From Chitinophagales bacterium (GTDB lineage: Bacteria > Bacteroidota > Bacteroidia > Chitinophagales > UBA2359): 39,914 nt of DNA. A program made the position numbers and the translations under genes. Positions 26,208 to 35,949 of this stretch are shown here, piece by piece. The stretch spans positions 1 through 39,914 of the forward strand of contig JAEUUX010000047.1 in NCBI GenBank assembly GCA_016787295.1, given 5' to 3'. Each line of letters opens with the position of its first letter. Position 1 is the first letter of the stretch. Below the pieces are notes generated by a model, which was not told the origin of the DNA, did no database searches, and saw only the letters and a program-made list of their open reading frames with translations.

Positions 26208-28322
26208 TCAATCCCCTTCCTGCACCGAAACCAAACCTGCCACACCACCACTCCACTGCACCACAATTTGGTTGGTGTTTTGTCCGCTTACAATAGTGCC
26301 GCCCATAACCGTCCAAGCGTAGGTATGTCCTGCCACAAGAGGCGTTGAATAGGTGTGTAAATGGCTGTTGCAAGCTATGGTGCTACCTATGATGAATGGC
26401 GCAGGTGGCACACAAGCATCGGTCGTAAAACGCAATACGCGCGACGAAAATTTAAATTCGCCTACCCACAGTTGGTTATCATGGAAACAAACAGCACTTG
26501 GCATAAACAAACGGTTTTGCCCAATAGCAGGCTGATGCTCCTGCCAACTGCTCTGCCCCAATGCCACCACACTCGCCGTATTGCCCGCTTGGTTGATGTC
26601 TTGCCACAACAACACACTATTAAAACTGTTGTTTGCAATAGCCAAAGCACCGTTATAGGTAGTAGCCTCAGCAGGCAGGTTTAATAAGCCGGGTGTATTA
26701 ATGGTTTTCCAAGGTGTGAGGTTGCCTGCGGCTATGTCTGCTACCCGATGCACAAACACCGTTGCAGGACTTTGGCGCGCAATGCAAAAATACGTACCAT
26801 CGCTCGATAAACGATTAGTCAAAGTGCCTCCGCCCGAAGCTACATTAATCGTATATAGCGGATTGACGGAGACATTCGCTGGAATGCCTGCCCAAATATA
26901 AATCATGCCGTTGCGGTCGGCGAGGTAGAAAAATTGTGCGTCCAACGCCACGCCTTTTATGTCGCTCAAAACTGCTGTGCCGATGTTGCCATTAAAAGTT
27001 TGATTGGGAGGTAGCGTTAGAGCATTGGCATTATTCCATACCAAGACCCGATTGCCACCTCCCGCCACAAATTTGCCATTGTAACAAGCATTGTCCCATG
27101 GTGAAAAGTTGTAGGGCTGCAAACTCACCACCGTGTCAGGCATAACACCCGATTGAGTTGGCAGGTTGTTGTAGATATACAAACGGCGGTCAAAATCGGA
27201 AGTCAAAATCAAACGATTGTTGTGTATAGCAATAGCAGGATTTTGCACATAACCAATACTGTCCAAAGTGTTGTGCGTATGGTTGGCAACGCCCAAAGCA
27301 AACAGCGGATTGATACCATTGGCGGGAGTTTGGTCATATACCAATACATCATTGCCGTTATAGTTGTTTACATAAATTCTGTTGTTGATTTCCACTAAAT
27401 CTACCCCATCGCCGTTTTTGTAATAAGCAGGTGTAGCAACAATATCGGGATTTTGTGTGGCAGTGGTGGGCATGGCATTCCATGTATAAATATTCATCAA
27501 ACCCGAAGCTGCCAATTTTCCCGAAGTCAATTTAGTGCCTTTTATCCATTCGTTGCGATAAAAATCGTAGGGCTGATTGGTGTTTGTGGGGTAGCTGTTC
27601 CAGAAAAAAGTGCCGGGCATACCCGTAACAGTGGCATTGTGGTCTCCCACAAAAAAATAGGTACTGCCGTCGGTAGAAATGTTGCGCGGCGTTCCCATCG
27701 TAGCCAACGAGATGGTGTAATCGGGCGGCGTATTGTCAGCAGTTGGCAGGTTATTCCAAAACAATAGCGTTTTGCCCGATGTTGCCACCGCAACCAAGCG
27801 CGTGCCATCTGTCCAAACGCCCCAAGGCCAGCCCCATTGTTGCACCGAACCAGCAGGCGTGAGTGTGGGCAGGTGAATGGAGGTGTTGGCAGCTTGTCCG
27901 TTAAAAGTGGGAAAAGTGTTCCATATCAAAATACGGTCGTTGTCGGTGTCGGCTACGGCGAGTGTGCCATTAGCAGCCACCGAAGCATTGCCAACCCAAT
28001 TTAGTTTGTCTTTGTTGATGCCGGGATTATTGTCCGTAAAATTGATTTGCCCCAATACCAAATCGGGTGCATCATTCCAAGCTGTTGGCGGCGTATTCCA
28101 CACCAAAATGCGGTTGTTAAAACGGTCGCACACCAATAAGCGTGTGCCATCGGTAGCCAAACCGTTGGGGTGATTGAAGGTCAATGCTTCACCAGCATCA
28201 TTAAAACCAACACCCGAAATCATCAAATCGGCGTTTTGTCCGTTCTGAAACCAAGTTGTTTGCGCTATGAGCGGCATTGAGCTTAGTAAAAATAATGCCC
28301 AAAAGTGGTAAAATGGAGACAT
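26208..28322 (-). CDS. Secreted NHL-like beta-propeller protein with PKD-like tail
   Basis: A large secreted protein, 704 residues from the ATG at 28322. The signal peptide MSPFYHFWALFLLSSMPLIAQ is followed by repeated NHL-like blades built on text such as LLVCDRFNNRILVWNTPP and LAVADTDNDRILIWNTFPT, about 40-60 residues apart through most of the length. The C-terminal 70 residues (CVPPAPFIIGSTIACNSH, then HTYAWTVMGGTIVSGQNTNQIVVQW) form a PKD-like domain and stop at VSVQEGD with two adjacent stop codons. No T9SS sorting domain follows, although proteins of this build usually carry one. The frame extends upstream to 28475 but crosses the intergenic spacer, and the residues there are not signal-like, so the ATG at 28322 is preferred. 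Confidence 0.85.
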   Translation of the reverse strand: MSPFYHFWALFLLSSMPLIAQTTWFQNGQNADLMISGVGFNDAGEALTFNHPNGLATDGTRLLVCDRFNNRILVWNTPPTAWNDAPDLVLGQINFTDNNPGINKDKLNWVGNASVAANGTLAVADTDNDRILIWNTFPTFNGQAANTSIHLPTLTPAGSVQQWGWPWGVWTDGTRLVAVATSGKTLLFWNNLPTADNTPPDYTISLATMGTPRNISTDGSTYFFVGDHNATVTGMPGTFFWNSYPTNTNQPYDFYRNEWIKGTKLTSGKLAASGLMNIYTWNAMPTTATQNPDIVATPAYYKNGDGVDLVEINNRIYVNNYNGNDVLVYDQTPANGINPLFALGVANHTHNTLDSIGYVQNPAIAIHNNRLILTSDFDRRLYIYNNLPTQSGVMPDTVVSLQPYNFSPWDNACYNGKFVAGGGNRVLVWNNANALTLPPNQTFNGNIGTAVLSDIKGVALDAQFFYLADRNGMIYIWAGIPANVSVNPLYTINVASGGGTLTNRLSSDGTYFCIARQSPATVFVHRVADIAAGNLTPWKTINTPGLLNLPAEATTYNGALAIANNSFNSVLLWQDINQAGNTASVVALGQSSWQEHQPAIGQNRLFMPSAVCFHDNQLWVGEFKFSSRVLRFTTDACVPPAPFIIGSTIACNSHLHTYSTPLVAGHTYAWTVMGGTIVSGQNTNQIVVQWSGGVAGLVSVQEGD

Positions 28323-28477
28323 GAAATTGTTATTTGGGTTTGTTGGGGCAAATATACGCAAAAACAACAAAATAGGTTCTTTAAAAACAACAAAAAATTT
28401 TATCAAACAGAAATTTTGAACTACTTGAATGATGTTTTGAACTACAAAACCATGTAAGGGCTTGATTTTTATCACAA

Positions 28478-28632: not shown

Positions 28633-29214
28633 CTAACTATCCTCGTTGGTATTGGTGGTTTCATCGCCTTTTGAGTCAAAATATTTCTCAACATGTTTGC
28701 CATCTTCGTTCAGTTCCACTTCATAGAACGTTCCTTGTGCGGTGTGTTCTATTTCGTATTCCTCAACGCTGGCTTTGGGAAATTTGGTCGCAATTTTTTG
28801 GCGAATATCGTAGGGGATATCCGTTTCGGCAACATGTTCAAATTCTGTTTCTAACCAATTACCGTTTTTATCGTATTCTACCTCTATTTGTTTGTTATTC
28901 TCAGTAAAAATTGCTTCGAAACCATAGTGTCGTTCCTCCCATTTCACCTGATTGATGGGGATTTGTGGGTGTCGTTTCATTAAATTGCCAATGGCTTGGT
29001 CACTCACAAAAGCAGGAATTTCGGCAGGTGTTGCATGGTCTGCATCGGGCGGAGCAGGTGGTGTGGGTGGCGTGGGTGGTGTAGTCGGCACCGCTTCTAT
29101 TGGCACTAATTCGGCTGGTGGTGTATCCGTTTTCATCTTAAAAAAAATATAACCTCCAATTAGCGCGGCAAACAACAATACCAAATTGAATGTTTTTAGT
29201 CTATAAGCTGCCAT
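28633..29214 (-). CDS. Membrane-anchored PepSY-like (DUF2874-type) protein
   Basis: A 193-residue protein from the ATG at 29214. An N-terminal membrane anchor (LKTFNLVLLFAALIGGYIFF) is followed by a proline/threonine linker (VPTTPPTPPTPPAPP). The soluble part contains two PepSY-like halves: QVKWEERHYGFEAIFTENNKQIEVEYDKNGNWLETE and VEEYEIEHTAQGTFYEVELNEDGKHVEKYFDSKGDE. This is the pattern of the putative beta-lactamase-inhibitor-like PepSY-like family (PF11396), which is common in Bacteroidota and of unknown role. A TTG-initiated extension to 29283 is not preferred. It stands alone, with tRNA-Asn upstream on the same strand. Confidence 0.82.
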   Translation of the reverse strand: MAAYRLKTFNLVLLFAALIGGYIFFKMKTDTPPAELVPIEAVPTTPPTPPTPPAPPDADHATPAEIPAFVSDQAIGNLMKRHPQIPINQVKWEERHYGFEAIFTENNKQIEVEYDKNGNWLETEFEHVAETDIPYDIRQKIATKFPKASVEEYEIEHTAQGTFYEVELNEDGKHVEKYFDSKGDETTNTNEDS

Positions 29215-29306
29215 AATTGATACAAAATATTTAAGGATGTAAATAGGTATTTTGCAATTGCCAACGGCAACCGCAAAATACAATATAATAGATAAAAAAT
29301 AAGAAA

Positions 29307-29558: not shown

Positions 29559-31238
29559 TTAGACCACCAAAAACTGCTTTTTTTCTGCCAACCAAGTTTC
29601 TATTTCGGAGCATGACCAAGCATTAAAGGTCATTTGGGTAGGTAACATGGCTTTGTGGGCGACATACACCCCAAACCTAACGTCTTCGATTCCTGTTATG
29701 CTGTGTGCATCGGGGTTGATAGCAATTGGCACACCACGCTCCATGCAATAATCTATCCATCGCCAGTCGATGTCTAAGCGATAGGGACTTGCATTGAGTT
29801 CTATAACCACTTTGTTGTCGGCACAAGCATCGATGATTTTTCGGTGGTCAATTGGGTAGCCTGCTCGTGATAGCAACAAACGTCCTGTTGGGTGTCCCAG
29901 AATGGTGGTATAAGGATTTTCGATGGCTTTCAATAAGCGCGACATGGCTTTTTCTTCAGTCATTTTCAAATTGCTATGAACAGAAGCAATAATGAAATCG
30001 AAACTTGCCAACACATCGGACGCATAATCTAATGAACCATCGCTCAAAATATCCGATTCTATGCCTTTATAAATTTTGAAAGGTGCTAATTTTTCGTTCA
30101 GGCGGTCGATTTCGCGCTGTTGCTGGGCAATTTTTTCTTCATACAAACCACCTGCGTAAAAAGCAGATTTAGAATGATCGCTCACACCCAAGTATTCATA
30201 ACCCGCTGCTATACATGCTTGAGCCATGTCGAGCAAGGTGTTTTGACCATCGCTATAGGTGGTGTGGGCGTGAATGATGCCGCGCAATTGGTCGGTGCGA
30301 ATGCAGTTGGTAGGTAGTTGGTTTTGCTGGGCAAGGCGGATTTCCTGTCTACCTTCGCGCCATTCGGGTAAAATGTAGGGCAGTTGTGCTGTGGCATAAA
30401 TAGCCGCTTCGTCGGTGGCTTGTTCTGGAATGCTGCCAAGCGCAAGAAACTGTTCGAGATGTTTGGTGGTGGCTGTGGTTCGGAACAATTGTGCAGCGAG
30501 ACCGTCGGGCGAACAGCAATATAATACTACAGGCGCTCCCAATGGGGTGTAGCCATGCAGTTCGTTGTCATGCACACTAATGCCTTGCCATTCCCATTTG
30601 TTTGCCATTTGCAGCAATACTTCCATCGATGGACAGCAGACGACAAAAGCGATGTTTTCGACCACTTCCAAACGGCGGCGCATGGCTCCCGTGAGTTGTA
30701 CTTGCTCGATTCCTGCATATTGACTGATTTGTTGGAGCAACGTTTGGGCTTCGGCTTCGAGGGTGGCATACTTGAATTTTCCTGCATTAGCCATCACATA
30801 TTCGATGCTTTGCTTGATGTTGTTTTGTGTTTTTTCGCCAAAACCTTTCAATTCAATCAAGCGATTTTCGTTGCAGGCATACAACAATTCACCCACCGAT
30901 TCGATTCCCAAATCTTGCCAAAGTGATTTGATTTTTTTGGGTCCCAGCCCTTTTATCATCAGCAACTGCACTATGCCTTCGGGTGTTTTGTTGAGCAAAT
31001 TGTCTAAGACGGATGATGCGTTGATGGTGAGCAAATCCCAGACCACATCGCCAATACTCCGCCCAATGCCTTTGATGCTATAGAGATTTTCTAATGACAT
31101 CTGGCTCAACTGTGCAGGACAACGTTCGATGGCTTGTTGTGCAAAGCTATAAGATTTTATTTTGAACGGATTTTCATCGTGCAACTCCATTAAGTTGGTG
31201 ATGAGGCGCAAGGCGCGCACTATTTCTTTGTTCGACAT
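29559..31238 (-). CDS. polX: PolX-type protein: HhH/Pol-beta-like region plus PHP phosphoesterase
   Basis: A 559-residue PolX homologue of normal length and order. The N-terminal 8-kDa-like and helix-hairpin-helix region has IKGIGRSIGD (55-64), IKGLGPKKIK (95-104) and LKGFGEKTQNN (130-140). The nucleotidyl-transferase palm (about 160-260) is degenerate: GAMRRRLEVVENIAFVV (184-200) has Asn195 and Ala197 where active enzymes have the two aspartates, and the third aspartate (VDLR type) is replaced in PVVLY by Val238. The C-terminal PHP domain (about 315-555) keeps its metal ligands: HAH (323-325), SDH (353-355), Glu394, His421, GHP (449), and NPDAH (508-512). It probably has 3'-5' exonuclease or AP-processing activity without DNA synthesis. 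It lies 12 bases after the previous gene of its operon. Confidence 0.9.
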   Translation of the reverse strand: MSNKEIVRALRLITNLMELHDENPFKIKSYSFAQQAIERCPAQLSQMSLENLYSIKGIGRSIGDVVWDLLTINASSVLDNLLNKTPEGIVQLLMIKGLGPKKIKSLWQDLGIESVGELLYACNENRLIELKGFGEKTQNNIKQSIEYVMANAGKFKYATLEAEAQTLLQQISQYAGIEQVQLTGAMRRRLEVVENIAFVVCCPSMEVLLQMANKWEWQGISVHDNELHGYTPLGAPVVLYCCSPDGLAAQLFRTTATTKHLEQFLALGSIPEQATDEAAIYATAQLPYILPEWREGRQEIRLAQQNQLPTNCIRTDQLRGIIHAHTTYSDGQNTLLDMAQACIAAGYEYLGVSDHSKSAFYAGGLYEEKIAQQQREIDRLNEKLAPFKIYKGIESDILSDGSLDYASDVLASFDFIIASVHSNLKMTEEKAMSRLLKAIENPYTTILGHPTGRLLLSRAGYPIDHRKIIDACADNKVVIELNASPYRLDIDWRWIDYCMERGVPIAINPDAHSITGIEDVRFGVYVAHKAMLPTQMTFNAWSCSEIETWLAEKKQFLVV

Positions 31239-31250
31239 GGTGCAAAAGAC

Positions 31251-31661
31251 TTAGTAGTTTTTTTTAGTGGGTTGATTGTTTTTTGCTTGTTGCACAATTT
31301 GCATTAAAAATTGTGTTTCGATAATTCCATACACAATATAGAATGCAAAAAAGGGCAAGATAAAGCGCGGAGAAGTGGGACGCACAATAAGGGCATAAGT
31401 AAGAATCATAATGAGGCAAAACACAAATTTGATACCCATAGCACCCAATACAATGCCTACTGATTTTTGAGATGTGCTACTTTTGTTGGACATGGCAGCC
31501 AAACCCAAGACAAAAGGCGTGATAAGGGCAAAAAATGCCCAACAAGTCCAGGCAAAACTCGGATATTCGCCCAACATATTAAAATATTGTAGCACCAAGA
31601 GTAAAACGCCCACTAAGAGCGATAAAATGAAGGTGCGAAGATATAAAGTAGTTGTTTTCAT
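31251..31661 (-). CDS. Small membrane protein next to AtpZ (AtpI-like position)
   Basis: A 136-residue protein with four hydrophobic segments (about 7-26, 36-55, 68-92 and 98-120) and a charged Lys/Asn-rich tail. I recognise no enzyme motif. In many Bacteroidota a protein of this size and topology follows AtpZ and precedes atpB, occupying the place of AtpI in the ATP synthase operon. Here the expected atpB is not next: the polX gene follows after 12 bases. Its ATG overlaps the AtpZ stop (TAATG), so the two are probably translationally coupled and may work together. Confidence 0.75.
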   Translation of the reverse strand: MKTTTLYLRTFILSLLVGVLLLVLQYFNMLGEYPSFAWTCWAFFALITPFVLGLAAMSNKSSTSQKSVGIVLGAMGIKFVFCLIMILTYALIVRPTSPRFILPFFAFYIVYGIIETQFLMQIVQQAKNNQPTKKNY

Positions 31662-31908: not shown

Positions 31909-33336
31909 TTATTCAGCCAAAACCCAAGCTTCTTTGTGGATATTTTTTCGAATAGTGGGCAGGTCGTTTCGGGCTTCTGCCTCTGTGTTATAGCAACCTT
32001 TGACCACTCTATAGCGCCCTTTGGGGGCGGGCAAAACCTTGAGTGTGTAGCCTTTGGCGCGCCATTGTTTGACCTCGTTTTGGGCTTTGGTATCACTATC
32101 AAAACTGCCAATAACAATGGTCGCACCACAAGCAGATGAAGAAGGTGTGCTATTGTTGTTAGCGGTGGATTTGGGTAGATTAGTATCAACTGGGGAACTT
32201 GGTAGCGGTGGAGTTTTCACCTCTTTGACAGGCGGTGGTGCAGTGGTGATTAAGGCATCAGTGTTTTCGCGGTCTTTGAACACAAGGATATTACCACTAT
32301 AACAAGCCACCCAAATTTCGTTTTGTTGAGCATCATACGTAATACCGATGGGGTGATGTTTGGTCGAAATTTTTTCGCGGACGTGCATATCAGCGGTTGT
32401 AATTTTGCTAATGTTGTCATCACTATAGTTAACGGTATACAATACAGCGCCATTGTCCGAAATAACCATGCTACGCGGGTGTTTGCCACTTCGCACTTTT
32501 TTGATGACTTTGTTGGTTGTCAAATCTATTTTGGCGATATTACTTTCGTTGTTCAGAGTCACATATAGATAACGATTGTAAATAGGGTCGAGGCAAAGGT
32601 GTCGGGGACCCGAACCCACATGGTTTATCCAAGACAATTGCAAGTTGCGCAGGTTAAGAACGGCAATACGTCCTGCACCCATAACGGCAATATAGGCTTT
32701 TTCGGATTTTTTGTCTATGATAATGCCGCGCGGGTGCGAACCCAAGTCTAAACGCAATTGCTCTTTGCCTTTTGCTACATCAACCACACTCACGTCACCA
32801 CTACACCAATTGGTCACCAAAACATATTTGCCGTCGGGTGAGGCTGCCACATATTTCGGAACAGCACCCACTTCTATGGCTTGTTCGATAACAAAACTTT
32901 GGGTGTTGATTTTATATAGAAAACTGTGGTCATAACAGTCACTTTTGGGGCAATCATCTTCGCCTGCGTGGTTAAAACCTTCGCCATACATTTGGTAGTT
33001 CGATACCCAAGCATATTGTCCGTCGGGCGAAAAAGCAGCCTCGACCGGTGAGCCACGATGCGTGCCTTTGCTGTTCGCTATGCCATAATCTGCCAAATTT
33101 ACTTTGTCACTAATTGTTTTGACCAGCTCATATTGTCTGTTATAAACCGTTATGGTGTGGCGATACATCATGTTCTGGGCAAAAAATAAGCCATTGCCCG
33201 AATGAACTATCGATTTGGGTGAAATATCTCCCATAATTTGGCGTTGCAACACCAAATTAGTAGTACTTTCGTTGACAGTTTGAGCTAAAACGCTCCAATA
33301 AAAACCACAACAAAGCAAAAATACTATTTTTTTCAT
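31909..33336 (-). CDS. Secreted YVTN-type beta-propeller fused to a SPOR domain
   Basis: A 475-residue envelope protein. The signal peptide MKKIVFLLCCGFYWSVLAQ is followed by a YncE/YVTN-like propeller (about 35-355) with blades such as VPKYVAASPDGKYVLVTNWCSGDVSVVDVAKGK, HPRGIIIDKKSEKAYIAVMG and HPRSMVISDNGAVLYTVNYSDDNISKI. A Pro/Ser/Asn-rich linker (about 366-400) leads to a SPOR domain (401-475) with IVIGSFDSDTKAQNEVKQWRAKGY and GRYRVVKGCYNTEAEARNDLP. SPOR domains bind denuded peptidoglycan at division sites. This combination would place a binding or scaffold propeller on the cell wall. It is the first gene of the operon containing atpZ and polX. Confidence 0.88.
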   Translation of the reverse strand: MKKIVFLLCCGFYWSVLAQTVNESTTNLVLQRQIMGDISPKSIVHSGNGLFFAQNMMYRHTITVYNRQYELVKTISDKVNLADYGIANSKGTHRGSPVEAAFSPDGQYAWVSNYQMYGEGFNHAGEDDCPKSDCYDHSFLYKINTQSFVIEQAIEVGAVPKYVAASPDGKYVLVTNWCSGDVSVVDVAKGKEQLRLDLGSHPRGIIIDKKSEKAYIAVMGAGRIAVLNLRNLQLSWINHVGSGPRHLCLDPIYNRYLYVTLNNESNIAKIDLTTNKVIKKVRSGKHPRSMVISDNGAVLYTVNYSDDNISKITTADMHVREKISTKHHPIGITYDAQQNEIWVACYSGNILVFKDRENTDALITTAPPPVKEVKTPPLPSSPVDTNLPKSTANNNSTPSSSACGATIVIGSFDSDTKAQNEVKQWRAKGYTLKVLPAPKGRYRVVKGCYNTEAEARNDLPTIRKNIHKEAWVLAE

Positions 33337-33595: not shown

Positions 33596-34123
33596 ATGCG
33601 TAAATTATTCTTATCTATTGCGTTACTTGTTGCTACAACTGCTGGTTTAGTAGCACAAGAACAAGAAGTAACCAAAGAACTAACGAAAAGCGACATTAAG
33701 CCAGCTTCCTTTGTAATTGGCGAAGATGGTCAGTTACAAGAAACCACCGCTCCTGTTATTCAATTTACAGAAGAGACTTTCGATTTTGGCGAATTAGAAG
33801 AAGGTCCGCAAGTAACCCACGAGTTTAAGTTCAAAAACACAGGCAAAGAACCTTTGACTTTGAGCAACGTAAAAGCGTCTTGTGGTTGTACAACACCAGA
33901 TTGGCCCAAAACTCCTATCCTTCCCGGCGAAGAAAACGTGATTAAAGTAACCTACAACACTAAAGGTCGTATTGGTGCATTCAACAAAGCTGTTACTATT
34001 ACTTCTAATGCCTATACACCTACTGCACGTATCTATATCAAAGGTACAGTAAAAGCAGCTCCACAAGAGCAAACAACACCTGTTAAACCAGCCATTTCTC
34101 CTTTGTTGAAAGGCGACCAATAG
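33596..34123 (+). CDS. DUF1573 domain-containing secreted protein
   Basis: A 175-residue secreted protein with a signal peptide ending near VAQEQE (residues 20-22). Residues about 55-152 form a DUF1573 (PF07610) Ig-like domain: TFDFGELEEGPQVTHEFKFKNTGKEPLTLSNVKASCGCTTPDWPKTPILPGEENVIKVTYNTKGRIGAFNKAVTI is its standard pattern, with the conserved SCGCT. Family members are abundant in Bacteroidota and resemble ASPM/SPD-2/Hydin-type beta sandwiches. The specific role is unknown. It is a single-gene unit with its own promoter and a strong terminator. Confidence 0.93.
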   Translation: MRKLFLSIALLVATTAGLVAQEQEVTKELTKSDIKPASFVIGEDGQLQETTAPVIQFTEETFDFGELEEGPQVTHEFKFKNTGKEPLTLSNVKASCGCTTPDWPKTPILPGEENVIKVTYNTKGRIGAFNKAVTITSNAYTPTARIYIKGTVKAAPQEQTTPVKPAISPLLKGDQ

Positions 34124-34202: not shown

Positions 34203-34240
34203 CCTCCTTTCGTGCTTTTGTTCGAAAGGAGGTTGTTTTG
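34203..34240 (+). terminator. Terminator of the DUF1573 gene
   Basis: A perfect 10 bp stem (arms 34203-34212 and 34223-34232) with a 10-base loop and TTGTTTTG after it. A TTG-initiated upstream extension of the next gene would begin inside this T-run, which speaks against that start. Confidence 0.85.
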
Positions 34241-34261
34241 TATTTGCCTAAAAAAAAATGT

Positions 34262-34870
34262 ATGAATCCAACACCATTTGACCAAAATTATTGGGATACA
34301 CGTTACCAAAACCACGAAACGGGCTGGGATATTGGCTATGTGAGTACGCCCATAAAAGACTACATCGACCAGCTAACAAACCGCACTTGGCGCATATTGT
34401 TGCCAGGAGCAGGCAATAGTTATGAAGCAATATATCTATTGCAGCAGGGGTTTGAACAAGTACATATTTTGGATATTTCGCCAACTGTGTGCCAACGTTT
34501 GCAGGACGAACTGTCCGAATATATCGAGCAAGGCAGATTGGAGGTGCATTGTGAAGATTTTTTTGACCACCAAAATACCTACGATTTGGTGCTTGAACAA
34601 ACCTTTTTTTGTGCCTTATCGCCCGACTTACGCGCGGGATATATCCAAAAAATGCACGAACTTACCCGACCCACTGGACGCTTGGTGGGAGTGTTGTTTG
34701 ACCGCGTGTTTGACCATACCGACCGACCGCCTTTTGGTGGAAAAATATCGGAGTATGTGCCATTATTTGCACCTTATTTTGAGTTGCACACTTTTGCAAC
34801 TTGCTATAATTCTGTTCCACCACGAGCAGGAACAGAGTGTTTTATTAATCTAAGGCATTTGGAGGCATAA
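34262..34870 (+). CDS. TPMT-family SAM-dependent methyltransferase
   Basis: A 202-residue class I methyltransferase of the thiopurine S-methyltransferase family (PF05724). FDQNYWDTRYQNHETGWDIG at the N-terminus is the family signature. RILLPGAGNSYEAIYLLQQGF (about 45-65) is the SAM-binding motif I, with VHILDISPTVCQRLQ as the acidic strand. YDLVLEQTFFCALSPDLRAGYIQKMHEL (about 108-135) and GRLVGVLFD follow. Bacterial members methylate selenium, tellurium or thiol compounds, but the substrate here is unknown. The ATG at 34262 is chosen over a TTG at 34238. It converges on another methyltransferase gene across a shared hairpin. Confidence 0.9.
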   Translation: MNPTPFDQNYWDTRYQNHETGWDIGYVSTPIKDYIDQLTNRTWRILLPGAGNSYEAIYLLQQGFEQVHILDISPTVCQRLQDELSEYIEQGRLEVHCEDFFDHQNTYDLVLEQTFFCALSPDLRAGYIQKMHELTRPTGRLVGVLFDRVFDHTDRPPFGGKISEYVPLFAPYFELHTFATCYNSVPPRAGTECFINLRHLEA

Positions 34871-34958: not shown

Positions 34959-35729
34959 TTATTTGATAGCAATGGGCAACAAATCGAAACAAGTGTCAGA
35001 GGCAGGAGCAATGTGGTAATCATCGACCTTAATATCATCTACTAATTGGGTATTTTTGGACAACAACAAACGTCGATTCATACGGTTGAGCAGGTCATAT
35101 GGAATTTGCAGGACTTGGCGCGGCAAGCGATATTGAAGATTAAAAACATCGAATCGGGTGAATTTACTCACCGATTCTTTATTTCTATAGTAATAGTCTT
35201 CCACTTTTGCATTACCATACACGCCCATCATGTCTACCTTGCCAAAATATTGGCGCAACAAATTGTGTAGTCCTACAACAGTATATTCGCGAATATGCCA
35301 AGGGTTGCGGGTCAAAGACATTTTGATATTGGGTGTTGTCAAAATCAGGGAACCGCCCGGCTTTAGCACTCTACTCATTTCTGCTATCAAGGCTCGGTCG
35401 TTTTCGATGTGTTCAATGACCTGAAAACTCACTACAAAATCAAACGTATTGTCGGCAAATGGCAAAGGAGGCACGCTCATTTGTGCAAAACGCACATGGT
35501 CTAAACCTTGCGCATAACGGTCAATATCGGTGGCATATTTATCTATTGCCATATAATCGGAGGCATGGGGAGCTAAGATAGATACACCATAACCTTCGCC
35601 ACAACCTACTTCCAATACTTTGCCACTAATATGGCGAGCTGCTTCGTTGTAGGCAACCAGATGGCGCTGAAAAATTACATTATCGGAGTGTTCGTGTGAT
35701 GATACACGTTCGGCAGTTTGCATGGACAT
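34959..35729 (-). CDS. SAM-dependent methyltransferase (Methyltransf_11 type)
   Basis: A 256-residue class I methyltransferase. KVLEVGCGEGYGVSILAPHA (about 36-55) is SAM-binding motif I. DYMAIDKYATDID follows as the second strand. FDFVVSFQVIEHIEND (about 89-105) and LKPGGSLILTTPN complete the fold. The C-terminal third, with NPWHIREYT, is like methyltransferases that act near cell-surface sugar genes or on lipids, but the substrate is not known. The frame extends to 35873, yet the ATG at 35729 (MSMQTAERVSSHEHSDN) gives a normal start, and the extension would be an unusual aromatic stretch. A possible TAATTTTG -7 box lies upstream of this ATG. Confidence 0.88.
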   Translation of the reverse strand: MSMQTAERVSSHEHSDNVIFQRHLVAYNEAARHISGKVLEVGCGEGYGVSILAPHASDYMAIDKYATDIDRYAQGLDHVRFAQMSVPPLPFADNTFDFVVSFQVIEHIENDRALIAEMSRVLKPGGSLILTTPNIKMSLTRNPWHIREYTVVGLHNLLRQYFGKVDMMGVYGNAKVEDYYYRNKESVSKFTRFDVFNLQYRLPRQVLQIPYDLLNRMNRRLLLSKNTQLVDDIKVDDYHIAPASDTCFDLLPIAIK

Positions 35730-35949
35730 GAAAAAGTATTTTACAAAATTTGGCACAAAATTACGAAAAAACGCAAACAAAATAGACCAAATAAGAAATT
35801 TTGGGCGTTTGAGAGCAAAAAATATTATAATATAAACAAAAAAACTATAGGTATTTTGCCGTGATACGCCCATTTAAAGCTACTTAGCTCGATTTGGCAC
35901 AATTTTGGCTATACAAAGTGGGTTAAATTCCCTTAAAAATGTAGTTTTT

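What the first reader, a model, noticed from the sequence alone, without database searches (positions are those of the whole stretch)
30560..30690. PolX homologue has lost all three polymerase aspartates but keeps the PHP site
In the palm, GAMRRRLEVVENIAFVV has Asn195 and Ala197 where active PolX enzymes have two aspartates (GDxD or KDLD type), and Val238 sits where the third aspartate (VDLR type) is expected. The glycine/arginine frame around them is retained, so the alignment is secure by eye. The C-terminal PHP residues (H323, H325, D330, H355, E394, H421, H449, D510, H512) are all present. The likely outcome is a DNA-binding nuclease or AP-site enzyme without polymerase activity.
Basis: partly seen in the sequence, partly recalled or inferred. 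Interest (0 to 1): 0.55.

Follow-up and report, generated by a model that had tools for sequence, protein, structure and literature searches.

The report
Ordinary polymerase-dead bacterial PolX exonuclease
This gene encodes a DNA-repair protein that has lost the active site for making DNA but keeps a DNA-trimming nuclease site, a state already known to be common in related bacteria.

Summary
The 559-residue ORF at 29559-31238 (minus) is a bacterial family X DNA polymerase (PolX). N195, A197 and V238 align with the three catalytic aspartates of Thermus PolX; all nine PHP metal ligands are present. The dNTP-binding motif is also gone and the fingers are shortened. An AlphaFold2 model (mean pLDDT 93.1) gives an intact PolX fold. 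Small additions: the lysine matching the recalled Pol beta lyase nucleophile is Val65 here, and no Ku or LigD match was found in the genome, so the published link to end joining is not seen here. Most likely a DNA-end-processing nuclease on an inert PolX scaffold. New member of a known kind, low interest.

The parts
29559..31238 (-). Whole gene: noncanonical (polymerase-dead) PolX, 559 aa
   Evidence: ORF; NF006375 PolX equivalog 436.3 bits, over the 426 cut-off; PDB PolX matches E 4.6e-78 and 3.8e-69
31014..31238 (-). N-terminal 8 kDa HhH domain (residues 1-75); lyase-nucleophile position is Val65 (31044-31046)
   Evidence: Pfam HHH_8 at 1-71; alignment; coordinates; the identity of the lyase lysine (Pol beta K72) is recalled, not from a call
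30759..31013 (-). Thumb-like second HhH region (residues 76-160)
   Evidence: Pfam HHH_5 at 91-143; mean entropy 1.38 bits over 110 proteins; boundaries set by me
30501..30758 (-). Degenerate palm (residues 161-246): N195, A197, V238 in place of D, D, D; G184, R187, R188 kept
   Evidence: boundaries set by me
30351..30500 (-). Shortened, degenerate fingers (residues 247-296: 50 residues against 65-92 in 24 intact-triad PolXs); dNTP motif YFTGSK..N replaced by R253-T-T-A256-T257-T258..L261
   Evidence: boundaries set by me
29574..30284 (-). PHP nuclease domain (residues 319-555), nine ligands H323 H325 D330 H355 E394 H421 H449 D510 H512 present
   Evidence: Pfam PHP at 323-453; residues; 195 of 195 sampled phylum proteins

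Best explanation
A noncanonical PolX: the Pol beta-like half is catalytically dead and serves as a DNA-binding scaffold (two HhH regions, conserved Gly/Arg frame), while the C-terminal PHP domain binds metal ions (Mn2+ in tested relatives) and removes nucleotides or blocked ends from DNA 3' ends, and perhaps cuts at AP sites, during repair. Shown here: sequence, alignment, predicted fold and conservation. Inferred from tested relatives: nuclease activity and lack of polymerase activity. Inferred only: the scaffold role and the repair pathway served, which in this organism cannot be Ku/LigD end joining if the assembly is complete.
For: Triad N195/A197/V238 against DDD. dNTP site lost: R-T for the Y-F steric gate, A-T for the G-S motif, T for K, L for N; fingers 50 residues against a median of 73 in 24 intact-triad proteins. 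Nine PHP ligands kept and invariant in 195 of 195 sampled proteins. In 110 proteins the PHP domain is the most conserved part (mean entropy 1.05 bits) and the palm the least (2.66). Model mean pLDDT 93.1, pTM 0.84, closest to Thermus PolX 3au6 (Z 44.6, rmsd 3.8 over 542) and Deinococcus PolX 2w9m (Z 39.8, rmsd 15.6 over 525). Published assays of two noncanonical members (PMC9226535 section 14).
Against: The protein itself has not been assayed. The PHP domain could have a narrower substrate. One older report (cited in PMC9226535) claimed one-nucleotide extension by D. radiodurans PolX (triad AEE); the 2022 authors could not repeat it and suggest contamination. The published tie to Ku/LigD end joining is not seen in this genome.
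Confidence: 0.9

Rival explanations
1. Residual polymerase: other acidic residues (E191, E194) bind the metals and some incorporation remains.
For: E191 and E194 lie close in sequence. 104 of 110 proteins keep one or two acids in the triad, though the window protein keeps none.
Against: E194 directly precedes N195 and in an alternating strand should face the other side (inference; the model coordinates could not be read). The dNTP site and fingers are also degraded. A published single triad mutant of B. subtilis PolX (D203A) lost its polymerase activity.
Confidence: 0.03
2. A decaying gene: the palm broke because the whole gene is drifting towards loss.
For: Palm entropy is high, and PolX is patchy: 46 of 99 related genomes have any match, 42 a strong one.
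Against: The frame is intact at 559 aa, 9/9 PHP ligands are kept, PHP identity to 109 relatives averages 62%, and the broken state looks old: 2 label changes over a tree of 203 proteins built without palm and fingers.
Confidence: 0.03
3. Mainly an AP endonuclease or 3'-phosphodiesterase of base excision repair rather than a general 3'-5' exonuclease.
For: [quoted passage not shown] No nfo (endonuclease IV) match in this genome.
Against: The genome has an exonuclease III (xth) match of 309.3 bits and a Pol I match of 945.9 bits, so base excision repair has other enzymes. The deinococcal relatives are efficient 3'-5' exonucleases.
Confidence: 0.25

Closest known systems
Noncanonical (altered) prokaryotic PolX, Prostova et al. 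2022, PMC9226535
   Same: Broken triad, lost dNTP motif, shortened fingers, intact PHP consensus, HhH regions present; the paper says most Bacteroidetes PolXs are of this kind
   Different: All three acids lost here (so too in 17 others of 195 sampled). No Ku or LigD match in this genome. Lyase-position lysine replaced by Val65
Deinococcus radiodurans PolX (PDB 2w9m), triad AEE
   Same: Same domain plan; the paper gives it the full PHP consensus and no polymerase activity
   Different: Keeps two glutamates in the triad; about 31% identical
Thermus thermophilus PolX (PDB 3au2, 3au6), canonical
   Same: Fold and domain order (Z 44.6 to 3au6)
   Different: Full DDD triad and longer fingers; a canonical polymerase
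Actinobacterial PolX-like proteins (PMC12926913, passages read)
   Same: PHP kept, polymerase function absent
   Different: Those lack the polymerase region altogether; here it is kept in inert form

Membership tests
Noncanonical prokaryotic PolX (Prostova 2022) | PolX domain order HhH/8 kDa, thumb, palm, fingers, PHP | tested here: met
Noncanonical prokaryotic PolX (Prostova 2022) | One or more of the three palm acids replaced by non-acidic residues | tested here: met
   N, A, V: all three replaced
Noncanonical prokaryotic PolX (Prostova 2022) | dNTP-binding motif degraded | tested here: met
   YFTGSK..N replaced by RTTATT..L
Noncanonical prokaryotic PolX (Prostova 2022) | Deletions in fingers and often palm (not in every member) | tested here: met
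   Fingers 50 residues against 65-92 in 24 intact-triad proteins; palm 86 against 87-90, barely changed (my own domain boundaries, not the paper's)
Noncanonical prokaryotic PolX (Prostova 2022) | Nine PHP ligands kept | tested here: met
Noncanonical prokaryotic PolX (Prostova 2022) | No polymerase, Mn2+-dependent 3'-5' exonuclease in vitro | not testable with these tools
   Shown in that paper for two Deinococcus members
Noncanonical prokaryotic PolX (Prostova 2022) | Co-occurrence with Ku/LigD end joining (a statistical trend, not a requirement for membership) | tested here: not met
   No Ku match (PF02735) and no LigD match (one model, TIGR02776) in the window's genome, 98.34% complete in 296 contigs; in 99 related genomes Ku occurs in 9 of 42 with a strong PolX match and 7 of 57 without, p = 0.27
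Canonical PolX DNA polymerase | Three acidic palm residues | tested here: not met
   N195, A197, V238

The most novel reading that the evidence does not exclude
The N-terminal half has lost its polymerase triad, its dNTP site and also the lysine at the lyase position, leaving a pure PHP nuclease on an inert PolX clamp that works outside Ku/LigD end joining.
Probability: 0.35. Interest if true: 0.25.

Novelty: new member of a known kind. Interest (0 to 1): 0.12.

Why it matters
It matters little as a discovery, because the class and its chemistry are in print. It is a clean example with no acid left in the triad, in a genome with no Ku or LigD match, and so could help test what polymerase-dead PolX does when end joining is absent. 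Automatic naming by model NF006375 as 'DNA polymerase/3'-5' exonuclease PolX' is misleading for this protein and probably for the 177 of 195 sampled proteins with a broken triad.

Tried and rejected
Lyase loss as a mark of the polymerase-dead class: rejected. The lysine column (Val65 here) is Lys in 106 of 177 broken-triad and in only 4 of 18 intact-triad proteins of the phylum, the reverse of what joint loss would give; six intact-triad proteins from plasmids outside the phylum all have Lys. Val65 is unusual only among the window's own nearest relatives: the 12 nearest in the tree all have Lys.

Gene neighbourhood: the four nearest same-strand neighbours (26208-28475, 28633-29283, 31251-31661, 31909-33336) and the two methyltransferases (34238-34870, 34959-35873) have no tblastn match (E <= 1e-3) in 134 PolX loci, whose flanks are up to 1.5 kb (54 loci) or up to 5 kb (80 loci). 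A DUF1573 gene occurs near PolX in 11 of 134; not pursued.

NHEJ partner: no match in this genome. Plasmid and phage collections held homologues in 114 and 14 records, all under 60% identity; the plasmid ones served as outside references. Full PHP consensus fails in two of the eight plasmid-borne proteins (L120, L122), both with an intact triad. A paper search for PolX with Bacteroidetes, AP endonuclease and exonuclease since 2022 listed none, but it missed even PMC9226535, which writes 'AP-endonuclease', so it shows little. The published list of 302 triad variants is in a supplement that I did not read, so whether 'NAV' is among them is unknown. Superposing candidate acids on the triad in the model was not done, because no coordinates were found in the script box.

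Full report
What is there. The finding lies in a single ORF, 29559-31238 on the minus strand, 559 aa. It passes the cut-off of NCBI's PolX equivalog model (436.3 bits against 426). Pfam sees the N-terminal HhH domain, a second HhH region and the PHP domain; no palm model is listed, and the Pol beta thumb model is below its cut-off. The four distinct PDB sequences matched at E <= 0.001 are Deinococcus PolX (2w9m) and Thermus PolX. The nearest named genome records (80 kept of 466 confirmed) carry Bacteroidota names, so I take the window to be from that phylum.

Check of the residues. In the alignment to Thermus PolX, N195, A197 and V238 stand where the three aspartates are, and the GxxRR frame is kept. 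The dNTP-binding motif YFTGSK..N of canonical proteins is R253-T-T-A-T-T258..L261 here. The fingers have 50 residues against 65-92 in 24 intact-triad proteins, while the palm is nearly full length (86 against 87-90).

Structure. AlphaFold2, from an alignment of the window protein with 35 relatives, gave mean pLDDT 93.1 and pTM 0.84. The best structural matches are Thermus PolX 3au6 (Z 44.6, rmsd 3.8 over 542 residues) and Deinococcus PolX 2w9m (Z 39.8, rmsd 15.6 over 525, which I read as a different arrangement of domains); the PHP part alone matches YcdX (1m65, Z 28.0, rmsd 2.0 over 222). Of the triad positions, A197 lies in strand 196-201 with N195 just before it, and V238 in strand 236-242. 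By sequence the nearby acids are E191 and E194, neither at a triad column.

Relatives. Of 99 related genomes, 46 have a match and 42 a strong one, five of these partial. I compared 195 proteins of the phylum: the window, 29 relatives, 80 from named records, 25 more and 60 that I picked's list. Number of acids (D or E) in the triad: none in 18, one in 98, two in 61, three in 18. All 195 keep the nine PHP ligands. The 18 with all three acids are all among the last 20 that I fetched, distant matches and mostly in two pieces (L190-L207); the other two of those 20 have a broken triad. A tree built without palm and fingers from 203 proteins (195, two alphaproteobacterial and six intact-triad plasmid-borne ones) needs two changes between intact and broken, so the loss looks old; the splits that separate the two groups most cleanly have mixed support (0.14, 0.37 and 1.0). 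Across 110 proteins the palm is the least conserved domain and the PHP the most.

Known or new. Prostova et al. 2022 (PMC9226535; abstract, sections 11-16 and other passages read) described this class: 27.5% of prokaryotic PolXs in their set, most in one cluster mainly of Bacteroidetes and Deinococcus-Thermus, with 'most PolXs from these phyla' noncanonical. They assayed D. radiodurans and D. gobiensis PolX: no polymerase, Mn2+-dependent 3'-5' exonuclease, shown for D. radiodurans to depend on the PHP site. A 2026 survey (PMC12926913, passages read) agrees.

What differs slightly. The lysine column that I take for the dRP-lyase nucleophile (Pol beta K72, recalled) is Val65 here, while the 12 nearest relatives have Lys. 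Across the sampled phylum Lys is commoner in broken-triad proteins (106 of 177) than in intact ones (4 of 18), so its loss does not go with polymerase loss, and I read nothing into it beyond this protein. Neither Ku nor LigD (one model) was found in the genome (98.34% complete, 296 contigs), and in 99 related genomes Ku is not significantly commoner with PolX (9 of 42 against 7 of 57, p = 0.27). So the published association with end joining is not seen in this organism, and is not significant among these relatives. The genome has exonuclease III and Pol I matches but no endonuclease IV match.

Most likely mechanism. The inert Pol beta-like half holds gapped or broken DNA through its HhH regions, and the PHP domain trims or cleans 3' ends, perhaps also AP sites. 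The residues are shown and the fold is predicted; the activities are inferred from assayed relatives; the pathway is a guess.

Noticed in passing
L190-L207: 18 PolX proteins from more distant members of the same phylum have an intact DDD triad and keep YFTGSK (the following Asn in 16 of 18), so canonical PolX does occur in the phylum as grouped here, although the 2022 paper reports none in its non-redundant Bacteroidetes sample.
   Followed up: partly
L192, L193 (genomes G406, G438): Both genomes show a further strong PolX-like match on another contig, so two copies per genome seem to occur; the two fetched copies have DDD.
   Followed up: no
window 33596-34123: A DUF1573 gene lies about 2.4 kb from polX, and DUF1573 genes occur near polX in 11 of 134 PolX loci, often within a few hundred bases of it.
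   Followed up: partly
window 31909-33336: A beta-propeller (lactonase/cytochrome D1-like) followed by a C-terminal SPOR domain in one protein.
   Followed up: no
window 31251-31661: A 136-aa hydrophobic, probably membrane protein directly upstream of polX with no Pfam match at E <= 0.01.
   Followed up: no
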